Program-made: the position numbers and the translations under genes
Notes under the pieces: generated by a model
Told to the model about the DNA's origin: nothing
Database searches by the model: none
What the model saw: only the letters and a program-made list of their open reading frames with translations
From: Listeria innocua
GTDB taxonomy: Bacteria > Bacillota > Bacilli > Lactobacillales > Listeriaceae
Reading direction: 5' to 3'
Assembly (NCBI RefSeq): GCF_028596125.1
Contig: NZ_CP117229.1
Span: 914,001 to 978,000 of the forward strand
DNA: 64,000 nt
Part shown: positions 1,894 to 44,459 of the stretch, piece by piece
How positions within the stretch are numbered: the stretch's first letter is position 1
Layout of the letters: each line of letters begins with the position of its first letter

Positions 1894-2364
1894 ATGAAAA
1901 CAATCAACTCAGTAGACACAAAGGAATTTTTGAATCATCAAGTAGCGAATTTAAACGTATTCACAGTAAAAATTCATCAAATTCATTGGTATATGAGAGG
2001 CCACAACTTCTTCACTTTACATGAAAAAATGGATGATTTATATAGCGAATTCGGTGAACAAATGGATGAAGTAGCAGAACGTTTACTTGCCATTGGTGGA
2101 AGCCCATTCTCGACTTTAAAAGAGTTTTTAGAAAATGCGAGTGTAGAAGAAGCTCCTTATACAAAACCTAAAACTATGGATCAATTAATGGAAGACTTAG
2201 TTGGTACATTAGAATTACTTAGAGACGAATATAAACAAGGCATTGAGCTAACTGACAAAGAAGGCGACGATGTAACAAACGATATGCTAATTGCATTTAA
2301 AGCTAGCATTGACAAACATATCTGGATGTTCAAAGCATTCCTTGGAAAAGCTCCATTAGAATAA
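1894..2364 (+). CDS. fri: Dps-family ferritin Fri
   Basis: Non-haem iron-binding ferritin-like protein of the Dps family, 156 aa. It assembles as a dodecamer that oxidises and stores iron and limits peroxide damage. The intersubunit ferroxidase ligands are visible: His31, His43, Asp47, Asp58 and Glu62, in HWYMRGHNFFTLHEKMDD and the following EQMDEVAE. The start ATG has an upstream AGGAGG. It is monocistronic, with a strong terminator directly downstream and a PerR/Fur-type operator upstream. Listeria Fri is also known for roles in virulence, cold shock and beta-lactam tolerance. Confidence 0.97.
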   Translation: MKTINSVDTKEFLNHQVANLNVFTVKIHQIHWYMRGHNFFTLHEKMDDLYSEFGEQMDEVAERLLAIGGSPFSTLKEFLENASVEEAPYTKPKTMDQLMEDLVGTLELLRDEYKQGIELTDKEGDDVTNDMLIAFKASIDKHIWMFKAFLGKAPLE

Positions 2365-2598: not shown

Positions 2599-2901
2599 AT
2601 GAATATCGAGGTAACGGACCAAGCAAATAAATGGTTTCATGATGAATTTGATGTAGCTGATGGTAATGGAATTCGACTTTTTGCCAAATATGGTGGTTCT
2701 AATAGTTCCTTGCATCCTGGTTTCTCTATCGGTTTAGCTGCCGAAAAACCGCAAGAAGCAGCAGTCGCTGAAAAGAAAGAAGACTTAACTTTCTTTATTG
2801 AAGATCATGATTATTGGTATTTCAAAGACCACGACTGGAAAATTGACTATGAACCAAAAACGGAAGAAGTATCCTTTTCCTTTAAAGAAAAAGTGAAATG
2901 A
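2599..2901 (+). CDS. HesB/YneR-like protein
   Basis: Small cytosolic protein of 100 aa that resembles the HesB-like YneR family, related in fold to A-type iron-sulfur carriers. It contains no cysteine at all, so the Cys ligands used by IscA/SufA scaffolds are absent and a classical Fe-S carrier role is unlikely. I chose the ATG at 2599 because GAGGAG lies 8 nt before it; a GTG at 2590 overlaps that site and is less likely. It lies between fri and the MBL lipoprotein gene with its own terminator. The function is unknown. Confidence 0.8.
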   Translation: MNIEVTDQANKWFHDEFDVADGNGIRLFAKYGGSNSSLHPGFSIGLAAEKPQEAAVAEKKEDLTFFIEDHDYWYFKDHDWKIDYEPKTEEVSFSFKEKVK

Positions 2902-2916
2902 ATACAACATAAATTG

Positions 2917-2952
2917 CCGCGTGTAAATCGATTTTGATTTCATGCGGTTTTT
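2917..2952 (+). terminator. Intrinsic terminator after the YneR-like gene
   Basis: CCGCGTGTAAATC pairs, with wobbles, to GATTTCATGCGG, followed by TTTTT. Confidence 0.75.
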
Positions 2953-3015
2953 GTTTTAAAAGCTTTACTGTTCTCTATTCCTTTGCTATTCTACTAAGAG
3001 AGCAGGAGGAGAAAG

Positions 3016-4146
3016 ATGACAAAGAAATTAGTAATTTGTATTAGTTTAATCGCGATATTTTTAAGCGGTTGTAGTTTTTCAGAACCATCCACTAAACCAT
3101 CTAACATCACAGAAAAAACCTTAAATGGTGCAAGCTTTACTTTTTTTGATGTTGGTCAAGGGGACAGCACACTTATTCAAGCAGAAGACGGTACGACTAT
3201 TTTGATTGATACTGGTCGACAAGATGATGACCGGATTTTAACTTATTTAAAAGAAGCAAATATAAAAAAGCTAGATTTGCTATTACTGACACATCCACAT
3301 GCCGACCATATTGGTAATGCCGACAAAGTCATTGCTACATATAAACCGAAAGAAATTTGGATGGATGGCTTAACTTTTTCAAGCAGTATTTATGAGAAGG
3401 TAATTGATGCAGCACTGGCCTCAAATGCGAAATATAAAGAACCAAGACGCGGTGATAAAGCGACTTTTGGTCCATTTGATATAGAAGTCCTAAGCCCAGA
3501 TAAACTTCAAAACGACGCCAATAATGACTCCATTGCAGTCAAAATGACATACAAAGATATTTCTGCCATTTTCACTGGTGATGCGGAAAAAGGGCGGGAA
3601 CGAGAAATGGCAGATAGTGGCGCCAATTTAGAAGCAGATATTTTAGACTTAGGACACCATGGTTCATCCACTTCTAATCAACCATTTTTCTTAGATAAAG
3701 TGAAACCTCAAGTGGCTGTATACTCCGCTGAAATGGCCAACAGTTATGGACATCCCCATGTAGAAGTATTGGAATGGTTAAAAGAACGAGATATTAAAAC
3801 TTACGGGACAGATGTGAATGGAACAATTACAATCGAAACTGACGGCGAAAAAATTCATGTCCAAACCGAAAAAGAAGGCACCCCTAAGCCCGGTAGCAGC
3901 TATAACAAAGAAAATAATACACAAAAAACAGAAGATGCCACATCAGAAGAATTGCCTGAAAGTATTAATCTGAATTCAGCATCTAGTGAAGAATTACAAC
4001 TATTACCACTTATTGGCCCAGCGCTGGCAGAAAAAATCATTGCCGAGCGCCCGTATCAGTCCATAGATGAATTGAAAAAAATTAACGGCATTGGTGATGG
4101 AATTGTGCGCCAAATTAAAGAACAAGGCCTTGCCGTAACAAAGTAG
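3016..4146 (+). CDS. ComEC-like metallo-beta-lactamase lipoprotein with C-terminal HhH domain
   Basis: Predicted surface lipoprotein of 376 aa. The N-terminal signal ends in lipobox LSGC (Cys19). A metallo-beta-lactamase domain of the ComEC C-terminal type follows: FDVGQGD (44-50), zinc motif THPHADHIG (92-100, His93/His95/Asp97/His98), FTGDAEKG (Asp189), GHHGS (His214/215) and YGHPH (245-248). A ComEA-like helix-hairpin-helix domain spans about 313-376 (INLNSAS, LPLIGPALAEKI, INGIGDGIV). This combination suggests an extracellular nuclease or phosphodiesterase acting on nucleic acid, by inference. It abuts the DUF3006 gene in the same operon. Confidence 0.88.
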   Translation: MTKKLVICISLIAIFLSGCSFSEPSTKPSNITEKTLNGASFTFFDVGQGDSTLIQAEDGTTILIDTGRQDDDRILTYLKEANIKKLDLLLLTHPHADHIGNADKVIATYKPKEIWMDGLTFSSSIYEKVIDAALASNAKYKEPRRGDKATFGPFDIEVLSPDKLQNDANNDSIAVKMTYKDISAIFTGDAEKGREREMADSGANLEADILDLGHHGSSTSNQPFFLDKVKPQVAVYSAEMANSYGHPHVEVLEWLKERDIKTYGTDVNGTITIETDGEKIHVQTEKEGTPKPGSSYNKENNTQKTEDATSEELPESINLNSASSEELQLLPLIGPALAEKIIAERPYQSIDELKKINGIGDGIVRQIKEQGLAVTK

Positions 4147-4155
4147 GTGAATAGG

Positions 4156-4383
4156 GTGAAAAAAGCAATATTAGATCGTATAGAGGATGGAAAAGCCGTT
4201 TTTCTAATCGAACCGAACCATACAGAATGGTTAGTAAATCAAGAAGAACTTGATTCCTCTATAAAAGAAGGGGATGTCGTCACTATTTCAGAAACAAATG
4301 AAATAATGAAACACCCCCAAGAAACTGATGAAATGAAAAAACGTATTGCGGAAAAGCTAGAAAGACTAAGAGGAAAAAACTGA
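4156..4383 (+). CDS. DUF3006 family small protein
   Basis: Acidic protein of about 75 aa with the DUF3006 pattern KKAILDRIEDGKAVFLIEP. Such genes are commonly paired with ComEC-like MBL proteins, as here, where it starts a few bases after the upstream stop. I prefer the GTG at 4156, which opens with the family's typical MKKAILDRIE; a GTG at 4147, in frame, is the alternative. The region after it has no strong terminator before the LhrC5 promoter. I recall work on this Listeria gene as a stress and infection factor, but its molecular activity is not evident from sequence. Confidence 0.8.
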   Translation: MKKAILDRIEDGKAVFLIEPNHTEWLVNQEELDSSIKEGDVVTISETNEIMKHPQETDEMKKRIAEKLERLRGKN

Positions 4384-4463
4384 GAAAAACTTTTTTAAAC
4401 TCTCATGAAATTTTCATCTTTCTTTCAGCACATTCTTTTTTAGGAAAGTTATTATATGTATAA

Positions 4464-4569
4464 GCTAACAACAAGCAAAACATTTTCATTTCTTTCCCTT
4501 TTTAGAATGAAAATCCCAAACTCCCTTTTAGCTAGTGCGGTTTACTCCCTTTTTCCGCGCTAGTTTTTT
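4464..4569 (+). ncRNA. lhrC5: LhrC5 small regulatory RNA
   Basis: A -10 TTATAT at 4452-4457 precedes a gene-free stretch ending in an intrinsic terminator. The terminator stem CTAGTGCGG / CCGCGCTAG is followed by T6 at 4564-4569. Four TCCC motifs lie at 4495, 4514, 4522 and 4546, the last in the terminator loop. UCCC-rich single-stranded motifs and about 110 nt length define the LhrC family, which base-pairs with Shine-Dalgarno regions of surface-protein mRNAs such as lapB. LhrC5 is known to lie at this locus and to be induced by LisRK under cell-envelope stress. The exact 5' end is inferred. Confidence 0.85.
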
Positions 4570-4581
4570 CATGCGCAAAAA

Positions 4582-5799
4582 TCACTTTTTCTGTGGAAAG
4601 AGAAATTTATTGCGTCCAGCATCTAGGCCGCAATATAGCATAATTAGGGTAATGCCGATCAGAACATATAACGTTGGTTGCCAACTGCCAAGAGCATCAT
4701 GGAGTGTACCAAATAATATTGGACCGGAAGCAGCAAACAAATAACCTATTGATTGCGCCATTCCAGATAAATCCGCCGATTCGGTAGCGCTTGTTGTTCG
4801 CAAATTAAAGAACATCATCGAAAGACTAAATGACATCCCCGAACCAATCCCATATAAAATAATCGCAGTAGCTAAAATAAATAGATTACCAGAAGCGAAC
4901 ATAATCCCAAAAATCCCAATCATAAATAATAAAACAGAAATCCCAACGAGCAACTGCTGATTTTTCATTCGCCCAGCTATAATAGGAATAATAAATGTAA
5001 TCGGCATAACAGCAAACTGCATTAGTGAGAGCATAAGACCGCTAGAAGTACTTGATAATCCTTGATCTGCTAAAATGTTCGGTAACCAAGCAATCGAAAT
5101 ATAAAAAATCGCGGACTGTGAACCCATATATAATGAAATTTTCCAAGCAAGAGGGGACTTCCACACCGAAGTAGTAACTAAATGTGTGGCAATTTTTTCT
5201 GAGCTGCGTTGGTTATATCTTAACTGTGGTAGCCAGATAACTAACGCTAAAACACCCAGCATTGCCCAAAAAACCATGCTTCCATGCCAGCTGAATTTAT
5301 TATTCATCGCAATCGGCACCGTCAAACCAGCAGCAAGTGCCGCACATAAATTCATTGAAATCGAATATACCCCAGTCATTAATCCTAATTTAAAAGGAAA
5401 CTCCTTCTTAATCAAACTAGGTAAAATGACATTTCCCACTGCAATAGCAAGTCCAATCATAAATGTCCCAGCAAATAAATAGAATTCGCCTCCAAAAGGT
5501 CGAAGTAAACTACCAATAACAAGAGTTAAAAGTGCGATAAAAATAAGTACTTCTATCCCTAGTGAACGACTTAATTTCGAAACAAAAGGGGATAAACCAG
5601 CAAAAGCAAGTAGTGGTATCGTCGTTAGTAATCCTGCCATCGTGTTTGTTAAATGTAAATCTGATTGAATCATTCCAAGTAAAGGTCCAACTGACGTAAT
5701 TGGTGCACGCAAGTTTGCTGCAATTAAAATAATGCCGACAATAAGCATCACCCGACTTGAACGCGTCAGGATTTTTTTATTTGTTAAATCTGAATTCAT
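4582..5799 (-). CDS. MFS transporter, CynX/YycB-like
   Basis: Integral membrane protein of 405 aa with about 12 hydrophobic segments. It resembles the cyanate/NNP-type major facilitator family (CynX, YycB): an early NLRAPITSVGPLLGMIQSDL segment, then LLTTIPLLAFAGLSPFVSKLSR. It likely exports or imports a small anion or drug; the substrate cannot be read from sequence. Its start overlaps the stop of the upstream GntR gene by 4 nt, so the two are co-transcribed and translationally coupled, and the GntR protein probably controls it. Confidence 0.85.
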   Translation of the reverse strand: MNSDLTNKKILTRSSRVMLIVGIILIAANLRAPITSVGPLLGMIQSDLHLTNTMAGLLTTIPLLAFAGLSPFVSKLSRSLGIEVLIFIALLTLVIGSLLRPFGGEFYLFAGTFMIGLAIAVGNVILPSLIKKEFPFKLGLMTGVYSISMNLCAALAAGLTVPIAMNNKFSWHGSMVFWAMLGVLALVIWLPQLRYNQRSSEKIATHLVTTSVWKSPLAWKISLYMGSQSAIFYISIAWLPNILADQGLSSTSSGLMLSLMQFAVMPITFIIPIIAGRMKNQQLLVGISVLLFMIGIFGIMFASGNLFILATAIILYGIGSGMSFSLSMMFFNLRTTSATESADLSGMAQSIGYLFAASGPILFGTLHDALGSWQPTLYVLIGITLIMLYCGLDAGRNKFLFPQKK

Positions 5800-7653: not shown

Positions 7654-7677
7654 GCTTAATGCTTAATCTACTTTTTC
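7639..7677. terminator. Bidirectional terminator shared by convergent genes
   Basis: A 16-bp perfect inverted repeat (AAAAAGTAGATTAAGC and its complement, loop of about 5 nt) has poly-A on one side and poly-T on the other. It extends into the last codons of both the AI-2E gene and the DUF915 hydrolase gene. Confidence 0.9.
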
Positions 7678-8565
7678 AGTTCCCCATAAAAAATTAGCTA
7701 CTTTGGCATCTACATCTGTATTTTCATGTAGTTTACTGTGAGCTGCTTTTTTTCCAGTAAAGATTTTTTCTTCGTAACTTTTAGCTTGTCCTTCAAAAAT
7801 AAATTTACCAGAGAGAGCGCTTGCGACCGATACACTACCATCGCTTTTGGTTCCGTCTAGCATATCACCGGCAATATTTAATACTTGTAAATTAGTAGGG
7901 ATTTTTTGTTTGTTTTTCATAAATTCACTATAACGATCAGAGGACTGTTTTGGTCCTTCATCCGTTAAATCGTAGGCAGTTACACCATTATCACCAACAA
8001 CTAGCCCATTAAGTGGTGCGCCAATTAAAACTAGATTTTCAAGAACTGGATAGGCTTTATCACTACCAACTTTCTCAATATAACTCGTTAGGCTAACTCC
8101 GCCCATTGAATGACCAACCGCATCTACTTTTTCAATATGATAATTATTTTTTAACTCTTTCATCACATTTTGTATCCACTGAGTTTGATTAACCATCGAA
8201 CTTTTATTATCCTCAAAAATGACTTGGATAGTTGGATTATGACTAAATTTATCGTAACTTCCTGTTGTGCTCACACTTCCATCAGCAGCAACAGTCATAA
8301 CAAGTGATTCTGTTACGATACCATCATCAGCAAGGCGATTAATCATGCCTTTAAATGAATTAGCTGTCCCTGAATAGCCATGAACAAAAAGCGTTGGTAC
8401 AGCAATTTCTGAAACTGGATTTTTAGCTTTTTTGGAAAATTTTTGTGCAGTAGCATTCGTAGGTTCTTTAGCAGCTTTTTTAGTAGGTTCAAACTGCAGG
8501 AAAATTATCCCAAAGCCTGTAATTATGATGGCTAAGATGATAATCGTGAGTATAACTTTTTTCAT
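7663..8565 (-). CDS. Secreted DUF915 alpha/beta hydrolase (first of a pair)
   Basis: About 300-aa alpha/beta hydrolase with an N-terminal membrane anchor or signal segment (VILTIIILAIIITGFGIIF) and a nucleophile elbow GHSMGG (Ser near residue 153). An oxyanion region PTLFVHGYSGTANSF is present, and a His near the C-terminus (AAHSKLHENTDVD) completes the triad. DUF915 proteins are extracellular lipase- or esterase-like enzymes. I start at the second Met (8565) because AAAGGA lies 7-8 nt before it; the Met at 8574 overlaps that site. A close paralogue lies just upstream in the same operon. Confidence 0.85.
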   Translation of the reverse strand: MKKVILTIIILAIIITGFGIIFLQFEPTKKAAKEPTNATAQKFSKKAKNPVSEIAVPTLFVHGYSGTANSFKGMINRLADDGIVTESLVMTVAADGSVSTTGSYDKFSHNPTIQVIFEDNKSSMVNQTQWIQNVMKELKNNYHIEKVDAVGHSMGGVSLTSYIEKVGSDKAYPVLENLVLIGAPLNGLVVGDNGVTAYDLTDEGPKQSSDRYSEFMKNKQKIPTNLQVLNIAGDMLDGTKSDGSVSVASALSGKFIFEGQAKSYEEKIFTGKKAAHSKLHENTDVDAKVANFLWGTEKVD

Positions 8566-8584
8566 TCGAAACATCCTTTAACTT

Positions 8585-9406
8585 TTATTTCTGCCCCCAT
8601 AAAAATTGACCGACATACTTATCAACGACAGTGGATTCATGCATGCTACTATGGGTTGCTTTGGGGCCTTTAATAACGTGAGTAATGACTTTCTGATGTG
8701 CAAATAACTTTTGACCATATAAGACGCTATTTAGTTTTACTTCGCCATCACTGTTTGAGCCGTCTTCTAAGTCGCCACCGATAATCATAATTTCCGTATT
8801 ATCAGGTAATACTTTGGCCATTTTTTGAGCAAACTTGGCATGAACATTATTGGCATTTTTAATGTCCACTTGCTGATCTCCATTTACATATTCTTCTGGG
8901 TAAAAAGGTACTGCGAGAAAAACAATTTTATTTACTTGTGGATAAGATTTGTTTTTTTCATAAGATGCTAAATAGGAAACCCAAGCACCGCCACCCATTG
9001 AGTGACCAATTGCATTGAATTTTTTGATGTCATAATTTTTTTGTAAATAGGACATTACTTTTTTTGTCCACATCGATTGCTGAGGGAGGGTTGCTCGGTT
9101 ATCTTCAAAAACAATATTAATTAACGGATTTTTTTCATTTTTACTATAAGTACCAGTAGTAGAAATGTTTCCGTCTGGACTTACATTTACTGTTAATGAC
9201 TCTGTGCCCCAATTATATTTTTGGTCGAAGCGTCGTATCATTCCATGAAGTGAGCGATCAGTTCCTCGGTAACCATGTATAAATATAGTTGGAATAGCAT
9301 CATTAGCTGCTTTTGGATATGTCGTGTTAATCGTAAGTAAAATAAAAATTGCTCCAACTAAACACCCTAAAGGTAAGACAATCGAGAAGAACACGCGCTT
9401 TAGCAT
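8585..9406 (-). CDS. Secreted DUF915 alpha/beta hydrolase (second of a pair)
   Basis: 273-aa paralogue of the adjacent hydrolase. It has an N-terminal hydrophobic anchor (VFFSIVLPLGCLVGAIFILL), the oxyanion region PTIFIHGYRGTDRSLHGM, the nucleophile elbow GHSMGG (Ser136) and the C-terminal ATHSSMHESTVVD with the likely catalytic His. The ATG follows AAAGGGG. The pair probably arose by tandem duplication: the middle section with STTGTYSKNEKNPLINIVFEDN is shared. The substrate is unknown. Confidence 0.85.
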   Translation of the reverse strand: MLKRVFFSIVLPLGCLVGAIFILLTINTTYPKAANDAIPTIFIHGYRGTDRSLHGMIRRFDQKYNWGTESLTVNVSPDGNISTTGTYSKNEKNPLINIVFEDNRATLPQQSMWTKKVMSYLQKNYDIKKFNAIGHSMGGGAWVSYLASYEKNKSYPQVNKIVFLAVPFYPEEYVNGDQQVDIKNANNVHAKFAQKMAKVLPDNTEIMIIGGDLEDGSNSDGEVKLNSVLYGQKLFAHQKVITHVIKGPKATHSSMHESTVVDKYVGQFLWGQK

Positions 9407-44295: not shown

Positions 44296-44459
44296 GTAAT
44301 CATATATCGTTCTTTGACAAATGTCAGAGGGGAGTAGCGCTGATTAGCTTTTAATCAGGATAAAGTCGTCATTACATGATAGAGATATCATCGGTTTTAT
44401 CACATTTAACTTTAAATGTTAGCGAGACCTTTGCCTTTACGGGCAGGTCTCGCTTTTTT
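44296..44459 (+). ncRNA. yybP-ykoY manganese riboswitch
   Basis: The leader contains the conserved AGAGGGGAGTAGC (44326-44338), a hairpin-rich middle with AAAGTCGTCA, and ends in AGCGAGACCTTTGCC paired to GGCAGGTCTCGCT with T6 (44421-44459). These are hallmarks of the yybP-ykoY class, which binds Mn2+ and controls TerC-type exporters, as in Bacillus ykoY. The terminator hairpin implies a transcriptional switch, anti-terminated by Mn2+. The 5' boundary is inferred. Confidence 0.88.

What the first reader, a model, noticed from the sequence alone, without database searches (positions are those of the whole stretch)
3016..4569. Surface MBL-HhH lipoprotein, DUF3006 partner and LhrC5 sRNA as one locus
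A ComEC-like metallo-beta-lactamase fused to a ComEA-like HhH domain carries a lipobox, so the catalytic part should sit outside the membrane as a free-standing version of two halves of the DNA-uptake machinery. It is directly followed by DUF3006 and then LhrC5, with only a weak hairpin between. Both the enzyme activity and possible read-through from the operon into the sRNA look underexplored.
Basis: partly seen in the sequence, partly recalled or inferred. Interest (0 to 1): 0.75.

Follow-up and report, generated by a model that had tools for sequence, protein, structure and literature searches.

The report
Surface nuclease paired with cytosolic guard
Listeria and many related bacteria carry a gene pair, also found on some phages, that makes a DNA-cutter-like enzyme sent outside the cell and a tiny protein kept inside it; the patterns suggest the small protein guards the cell against its own enzyme, which would explain a puzzling DNA-damage response.

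Summary
In detail: 3016-4146 encodes a lipobox-bearing ComEC-like metallo-beta-lactamase (MBL) with a C-terminal HhH domain, then DUF3006 (4156-4383), then LhrC5 (4460-4570), with no strong terminator between the last two. Much is published: the DUF3006 gene is sif (lmo0946), whose loss triggers SOS by an unknown route, and co-transcription into lhrC5 is shown (PMC10794523). The sRNA follows sif in only part of Listeria.

What looks new is the protein pair. DUF3006 sits beside an exported ComEC-like MBL across Bacillota in either order, and on phages (GBSV1; 10 of 11 viral-contig loci). Genomes with DUF3006 nearly always have a free-standing MBL of this kind (42 of 45 and 44 of 45 at 240 bits or more); those without rarely do (3 and 4 of 45). 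MBLs with DUF3006 within 1.5 kb keep their metal ligands (129 intact, one split ORF), whereas 25 without it have lost them. Listeria's second MBL, 62.5% identical to the GBSV1 enzyme, is degenerate in 14 of 14 genomes and has no DUF3006 beside it.

Best reading: an exported nuclease with a cytosolic antidote; Sif loss would expose DNA to Lmo0945. Binding and activity are untested.

The parts
1894..2364 (+). fri (Dps/ferritin-like), first gene of the published ferritin operon
   Evidence: Pfam Ferritin 121 bits; operon PMC10794523
2374..2407 (+). strong hairpin with T run after fri, terminator-like
   Evidence: fold of 2364-2412, -19.6 kcal/mol
2608..2901 (+). lmo0944, Fe-S_biosyn-like small protein
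   Evidence: Pfam PF01521 25.7 bits, just below its cut-off of 26.3
2909..2954 (+). strong hairpin with T run after lmo0944, terminator-like
   Evidence: fold of 2900-2960, -18.0 kcal/mol
3016..4146 (+). lmo0945: exported lipoprotein, ComEC-like MBL plus HhH
3070..3072 (+). lipobox cysteine, Cys19 (LSGC)
   Evidence: read
3139..3822 (+). MBL domain aligned to ComEC/Rec2 C-terminus (aa 42-269)
   Evidence: TIGR00361 148.9 bits, below its cut-off of 190.05; PDB 9ic4 E 1.4e-31
3289..3309 (+). THPHADH metal motif (H93, H95, D97, H98)
   Evidence: in 59 aligned MBLs H93, D97, H98 are H/D/H in 59 of 59; H95 is H in 55 and D in 4
3580..3582 (+). Asp189 of TGDA, metal ligand position
   Evidence: 59 of 59 D
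3652..3666 (+). GHHGS (H214, H215)
   Evidence: H in 58 and 59 of 59
3751..3753 (+). His246 of YGHPH
   Evidence: 57 of 59 H
3961..4122 (+). HhH_3 (ComEA-like) domain, aa 316-369
   Evidence: Pfam 49.8 bits; PDB 2duy ComEA-related E 2.6e-10
4156..4383 (+). lmo0946/sif, DUF3006, 75 aa, no leader
   Evidence: Pfam 61.4-61.6 bits
4381..4405 (+). weak hairpin behind sif
   Evidence: -2.9 kcal/mol, no T run
4450..4455 (+). TATTAT, -10 box of lhrC5
   Evidence: published as TATTAT in PMC10794523; located by reading
4460..4570 (+). LhrC5 sRNA with its own terminator stem (about 4530-4565)
   Evidence: Rfam RF00616 125.6 bits; fold -23.3 kcal/mol

Best explanation
Lmo0945 is a metal-dependent nuclease of the ComEC type that is exported and lipid-anchored, so that it cuts DNA outside the membrane; the HhH domain would hold the DNA. 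Sif (DUF3006) stays in the cytosol and neutralises any Lmo0945 that folds there before export, as barstar does for barnase (recalled) or Nin for NucA. When Sif is missing, pre-Lmo0945 nicks or resects the chromosome, RecA is activated and SOS, prophage excision and slow growth follow. LhrC5 is a neighbour in part of Listeria that uses its own stress promoter and also receives read-through. Shown here: the domains, intact active site, partnership, compartment pattern, phage carriage, and the link between partner and intact active site. Published: the sif phenotype, operon and sRNA facts. Inferred: Lmo0945 nuclease activity, Sif binding it, and this being the cause of SOS.
For: (1) Partnership: of 90 DUF3006 loci fetched from the phylum sample (the 30 best-scoring plus 60 I picked, mostly one per family), 71 have an MBL of this kind in the stretch, 70 on the same strand, in both orders (51 MBL first, 19 DUF3006 first); 62 of the 80 named loci kept. 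(2) Genome level, at 240 bits or more: free-standing MBL in 42 of 45 DUF3006+ against 3 of 45 DUF3006- genomes (phylum sample) and 44 of 45 against 4 of 45 (Bacilli); one of those 4 has a divergent DUF3006 next door. In Listeriaceae 32 genomes have both and 4 have neither. (3) Compartments: leader or lipobox in 67 of 71 MBLs, leader-like start in 1 of 71 DUF3006 (heuristic). (4) Active-site link: 129 MBLs with DUF3006 within 1.5 kb keep at least 7 of 8 ligand positions, one is a split ORF; 25 MBLs with 4 or fewer, and degenerate L124 (5), have no DUF3006 there. The second Listeria MBL is 62.5% identical to phage GBSV1 gp37, which has DUF3006 as its neighbour, yet carries H98N, H214A/T, H215Q in 14 of 14 genomes, each of which has one DUF3006 match only, at the sif locus. 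(5) Phage cassettes. (6) Published asymmetry: sif nonsense mutant sick with SOS, lmo0945 deletion without growth effect, and a regulator role rejected by EMSA. (7) ComEC MBL domains are Mn2+ nucleases (PMC8579336, PMC12455585), and a ComEC-like MBL is toxic to its cell once opened (PMC12799240). (8) C-terminal extras include LTD (9), Ada_Zn_binding (5) and HHH_3 (3) of 59.
Against: No activity, binding or double-mutant data exist. DUF3006 without an MBL in the fetched stretch is common (19 of 90 and 18 of 80 loci), and 2 of 45 DUF3006+ genomes of the phylum sample show no free-standing MBL. Nine intact MBLs in 6 genomes have no detected DUF3006 at all, and 11 others lie in genomes whose DUF3006 is elsewhere, so a neighbour is not strictly required. 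The 240-bit limit was set after the scores were seen: with E 1e-20 alone the Bacilli contrast is 44 of 45 against 15 of 45. ComEC, whose MBL domain is intact (27 of 27 ComEC-sized ORFs), occurs in genomes without DUF3006. The inactive MBLs fall mostly into one family, so 25 is not 25 independent losses, and inactive enzymes would also not need a metal-loading or activating partner. Charges do not favour binding: the Lmo0945 MBL domain is -17 and Sif -4. DUF3006 matches no known inhibitor; its best solved match is the yeast Chs5 N-terminus, E 1.5e-5. In the sif paper complementation restored SOS genes but not ICELm1, hfq, zea and rsbV.
Confidence: 0.53

Rival explanations
1. DUF3006 is a positive partner of the MBL: a secretion chaperone or metal-loading factor that the enzyme needs in order to be exported or active.
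For: Same co-occurrence and compartment data; inactive MBLs would not need it either.
Against: A helper's loss should look like loss of the enzyme, but the published lmo0945 deletion shows no growth effect while sif loss is severe.
Confidence: 0.2
2. Sif has its own cytosolic role in DNA replication or repair, independent of the MBL; the two genes merely share regulation.
For: DUF3006 genes without an MBL nearby (19 of 90, 18 of 80 loci); phenotype seen for sif alone.
Against: Paired presence or absence in 36 of 36 Listeriaceae genomes, conserved adjacency in both orders, phage two-gene cassettes, and the tie to an intact active site.
Confidence: 0.18
3. The MBL acts on cell-wall phosphodiesters such as teichoic acids, like pneumococcal Pce, not on DNA.
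For: Pce (1wra) matches at E 1.5e-12; fri, lmo0944 and lmo0945 are penicillin G-inducible (PMC3534079).
Against: ComEC domains are much closer (E 1.4e-31); HhH, LTD and Ada-type extras; SOS induction on sif loss.
Confidence: 0.1
4. MBL, Sif and LhrC5 form one conserved regulatory unit.
For: Co-transcription and Hfq binding are published; LhrC5 follows sif in at least 14 genomes.
Against: In the rows shown, 18 of 32 sif-bearing Listeriaceae genomes have no LhrC directly behind sif (capped list); LhrC5 has its own LisR-dependent promoter.
Confidence: 0.08

Closest known systems
ComEC/Rec2 C-terminal MBL domain (PDB 9ic4)
   Same: Same family by sequence (E 1.4e-31), same metal-ligand motifs, outside the membrane
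   Different: No channel or OB domain, soluble lipoprotein; ComEC domains form their own clade (support 0.84), the grouping of the free-standing ones is poorly supported
NucA/Nin (Bacillus) and NucA/NuiA (Anabaena); barnase/barstar (recalled)
   Same: Nuclease paired with a small inhibitor; nin lies beside nucA (PMC5758888 passages)
   Different: The DUF3006 profile does not list them among solved structures; inhibition not shown for DUF3006
HamM and related MBL pro-nucleases of Hachiman/AVAST/Lamassu
   Same: ComEC-like MBL whose DNase activity is kept in check (PMC12799240 passages); Lmo0945 matches PADLOC models of this fold, best LmuA 74 bits
   Different: Controlled by gating insertions and a protease; here exported and partnered by DUF3006
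Sif/Lmo0946 (PMC10794523)
   Same: It is this gene
   Different: The paper's held main text has no occurrence of nuclease, toxin, metallo or immunity protein and leaves the mechanism open
LhrC sRNA family (RF00616)
   Same: LhrC5 is a full member
   Different: Nothing unusual seen in the sRNA itself

Membership tests
ComEC/Rec2 (TIGR00361) | Full-length score over the curated cut-off, including channel domain | tested here: not met
   148.9 bits against 190.05; only model positions 444-663 match
ComEA (TIGR01259) | Score over the curated cut-off | tested here: not met
   44.8 bits against 152.35
MBL superfamily (PF00753) | Score over cut-off and HxHxDH | tested here: met
   76.7 bits; THPHADH present
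MBL superfamily (PF00753) | Metal-dependent nuclease activity of this protein | not testable with these tools
   only relatives are shown active
DUF3006 (PF11213) | Score over the cut-off | tested here: met
   61.4 bits against 32.3
LhrC (RF00616) | Score over the gathering score | tested here: met
   125.6 bits against 110
Exported nuclease with cytosolic inhibitor | Two neighbouring genes, enzyme with leader, partner without | tested here: met
   67 of 71 MBLs with, 70 of 71 DUF3006 without (heuristic)
Exported nuclease with cytosolic inhibitor | Partner sits only beside catalytically intact enzymes | tested here: met
   129 intact with partner; none of 25 inactive has it within 1.5 kb (one split ORF, L055, set aside); no inactive MBL hidden in the 19 loci without MBL
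Exported nuclease with cytosolic inhibitor | Enzyme not found without partner | tested here: not met
   9 intact MBLs in 6 genomes without detected DUF3006
Exported nuclease with cytosolic inhibitor | Direct binding and inhibition | not testable with these tools

The most novel reading that the evidence does not exclude
The MBL-DUF3006 pair is a portable surface-nuclease-plus-antidote cassette, spread partly by temperate phages, that degrades incoming DNA at the cell surface (a barrier to superinfection or transformation), and the SOS phenotype of sif mutants is self-inflicted DNA damage by its own partner enzyme.
Probability: 0.28. Interest if true: 0.82.

Novelty: new variant of a known kind. 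Interest (0 to 1): 0.62.

Why it matters
It offers a concrete explanation, testable in one experiment, for why loss of a 75-aa protein of unknown function sets off SOS and prophage excision in Listeria. It proposes a role for a domain (DUF3006) found in 217 of 398 sampled genomes of the phylum whose name and Pfam number occur in no paper of the held library, and would add a ComEC-type enzyme to the exported nucleases with inside inhibitors. Phage carriage suggests a use in DNA-entry control.

Tried and rejected
Natural MBL-DUF3006 fusions: none seen among the listed DUF3006 rows (open frames at most 210 aa, apart from one N-masked stretch, G590; the row list was cut). Cytosolic MBL in Bacillus sp. 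J37 (L256): rejected, a hydrophobic leader lies just upstream of the start my ORF caller chose. 'Broken MBL with kept sif' in G003: rejected, the catalytic part is whole and only the HhH is split off; in G001 the MBL does look split into two frames. Known defence systems: PADLOC matches of Lmo0945 are to parts of MBL-fold models, and none to Sif. Fold of DUF3006: not obtained. 'Listeria phage' contigs LM 4-11-1 and 4-14-1 with sif-like DNA at 84.6-85.9% are unverified wastewater assemblies and probably carry host DNA; not counted as phage evidence. Labels wrong: L125 (a ComEC fragment) and L274 (a phage MBL with DUF3006); both moved when reading the tree. Set aside in the active-site count: ComEC-sized ORFs (27), one split ORF (L055), hits covering under 170 model positions, and identical sequences; loci L186-L279, L002, L016 and L337 were left out. 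The groups with and without DUF3006 were fetched by different routes (through DUF3006, and through the MBL profile). A loose search of the 19 loci without MBL found only the end of an MBL about 2.1 kb away (L091) and a weak, short lipobox ORF (L036, E 3e-4), possibly a remnant, besides chance-level hits. Profiles used in scripts were built from the fetched loci themselves, so they lean to this family. Mirror-tree comparison was not done. The handles for searches were picked by me: 45 of 181, 45 of 217, 45 of the 63 over the cut-off (70 with any match), and 45 without a listed match (43 of 229 from the class sample, plus G431 and G432 from the phylum sample).

Full report
What is there. The window is a Listeria chromosome (own assembly of 2,887,185 bases; the genus is inferred from gene order and LhrC). 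In order: fri 1894-2364, lmo0944 2608-2901, the MBL-HhH gene 3016-4146, DUF3006 4156-4383, LhrC5 4460-4570, then an ORF on the other strand (4582-5799). Gene names come from published accounts of the same gene order (PMC10794523, PMC3534079; passages read). Strong hairpins with T runs follow fri and lmo0944, none was found right behind sif, and LhrC5 has its own terminator. The MBL-sif message could therefore end at the sRNA's terminator; a start near 3000 would give about 1.57 kb (my arithmetic), close to the published ~1,600-nt band.

What was known. Passages and sections of PMC10794523 show: co-transcription of fri, lmo0944, lmo0945, lmo0946 and lhrC5; lmo0945 and lmo0946 seen without monocistronic bands; a nonsense mutation in lmo0946 causing slow growth, SOS and A118 excision; no growth effect of deleting lmo0945; and complementation with a construct made from the lmo0945 deletion strain. 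The authors write that the route to SOS is unclear. PMC13350326 (passages) shows LhrC5 acting on fri mRNA with Hfq. PMC4132741 (passages) shows the LisR-dependent lhrC5 promoter. PMC3534079 already noted the ComEC and ComEA similarity and a putative signal sequence of Lmo0945 (passages). Searches for DUF3006 and PF11213 found no paper in the held library; searches for lmo0946 and lmo0945 found 6 and 5 papers, not all of which were opened.

The pair is widespread. DUF3006 occurs in 32 of 36 Listeriaceae genomes; the four without it have only ComEC-sized, ComEA-like or weak hits for the MBL query. It occurs in 217 of 398 genomes of the phylum sample and 70 of 299 of the class sample. Of 90 loci fetched from the phylum sample, 71 hold an MBL of this kind, 70 on the same strand; 19 do not. 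Stretches were 1.5 or 2.5 kb either side and some were cut by contig ends; in two of the 19 the MBL lies further off (L034, 3.8 kb; L091, 2.1 kb). Named loci (the best 80 of 484 confirmed): 62 have an MBL, in near-equal orders (31 and 30, one on opposite strands), and 18 do not. In the 62, three MBLs had no leader by script: two are fragments (L187, L255) and L256 has one upstream.

The reverse question. With a profile of 18 MBL domains (A1) at E 1e-20, free-standing MBLs (open frame under 600 aa) were found in 43 of 45 DUF3006-positive genomes from 30 families (missing G055, G164) and in 3 of 45 negative ones (G040, G076, G087; two short fragments, G075 and G057, not counted). At 240 bits or more this is 42 (G179 drops out) against 3. 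In Bacilli it is 44 of 45 (missing G590, whose stretch is masked) against 15 of 45 at E 1e-20, and 44 against 4 at 240 bits or more (G437, G446, G458, G488). The bit limit was set after seeing the scores. All eleven genomes that it removes were fetched: ten hold inactive MBLs (G441 and G473 also a lower-scoring intact one) and G431 only a contig-edge piece. G446 has a divergent DUF3006 behind its MBL. Fisher p-values are 3e-19, 4e-18, 2e-19 and 2e-11 for 43/3, 42/3, 44/4 and 44/15, but genomes are related, so these overstate the case.

The active-site link. In 59 aligned MBLs the metal positions are nearly invariant. Sorting the free-standing MBLs of the unnamed-genome loci (intact means at least 7 of 8 positions, H95 may be D; inactive means at most 4): with DUF3006 within 1.5 kb, 129 intact and one split ORF; without, 29 intact and 25 inactive outside Listeriaceae, plus in Listeriaceae the degenerate L124 (5 of 8) and a ComEC fragment (L125). 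Of the 29, eleven lie in genomes with DUF3006 elsewhere, one is the G446 case, three look like ComEC fragments (L310, L338, L339), five are low-scoring others, and nine (six genomes) have no DUF3006. The inactive ones look mostly like one family. The clearest case is Listeria's second exported MBL (G000:C2 274,513-275,355): 62.5% identical over 277 residues to GBSV1 gp37, but with H98N, H214A/T and H215Q in 14 of 14 genomes examined and an open frame of 280 aa in all. Each of these 14 genomes has a single DUF3006 match, at the sif locus, so none lies beside the second MBL at that threshold.

Phage carriage. In Geobacillus phage GBSV1, gp37 (MBL) and gp36 (DUF3006) abut, run opposite to holin and endolysin, and are followed by an annotated terminator. 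Of 11 IMG/VR loci with DUF3006, 10 have an MBL on the same strand (L267 cut by the contig end; L268 and L276 with one or two ORFs between), one (L271) has none. Among ten neighbours scanned, endolysins (L266, L267, L274), integrases (L268, L269, L276) and a minor head protein (L267) were recognised, two had no match and one only a family of unknown function.

How it works. The enzyme belongs outside and is closest to ComEC's Mn2+ nuclease domain (abstract of PMC8579336; abstract and one section of PMC12455585). A partner inside that is tied to an intact enzyme, and whose loss hurts more than loss of the enzyme, is what an antidote predicts; a helper would give the opposite asymmetry. ComEC may escape the need because its MBL domain is delivered together with the membrane channel (inference). 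DUF3006 is small and mostly acidic (56 of 66 with negative net charge, Sif -4), but so is the Lmo0945 MBL domain (-17; mean -6.7 of 59), so charge does not argue for simple attraction. The C-terminal extras (LTD in 9, Ada_Zn_binding in 5, HHH_3 in 3 of 59) point to DNA or envelope binding.

What is not shown: nuclease activity of Lmo0945, any contact between the two proteins, and cause and effect in the sif mutant. Verdict: the locus is ordinary as an operon with an sRNA, but the protein pair is a good, untested explanation for the sif phenotype. On checking, confidence in the antidote was lowered slightly (0.55 to 0.53) for the charges and the post-hoc bit limit.

Noticed in passing
G000:C2 274513-275355 (L124 4513-5355, - strand): Second exported Listeria MBL, 280 aa, key metal ligands lost in 14 of 14 genomes but frame kept: a conserved pseudoenzyme close to phage GBSV1 gp37.
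   Followed up: yes
L289-L293, L315-L324 and others: Exported-looking MBLs with lost metal ligands; in L291 one lies near genes that look like Ku and a LigD-type ligase (names recalled from sequence, not searched).
   Followed up: partly
PHROG phrog_7043: A 1077-position phage tail protein family contains a ComEC-like MBL region at 610-886, matched by Lmo0945 at E 3.6e-59.
   Followed up: no
window 4156-4380: The DUF3006 profile matches the N-terminal domain of yeast Chs5 (PDB 4wjw, E 1.5e-5; CHS5_N weakly in 37 of 66 members at E up to 1), hinting at a shared small fold.
   Followed up: partly
window 4156-4158: sif starts with GTG here; PMC13068326 names Lmo0946 in a section on start-codon usage, most of whose genes differ between lineages (passage). 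Dosage of an antidote could be tuned this way.
   Followed up: no
L123 3687-4884: In one Listeria genome (G003) the MBL and HhH parts are separate ORFs.
   Followed up: no
window 44317-44420: Manganese riboswitch (yybP-ykoY), 68.3 bits; of note only because ComEC-type nucleases need Mn2+.
   Followed up: no
window 7663-9406: Two tandem, similar exported-looking hydrolase-like ORFs on the - strand.
   Followed up: no
G419, G037, G492: Some genomes hold several DUF3006 matches (3, 3 and 6), some without an MBL beside them.
   Followed up: partly
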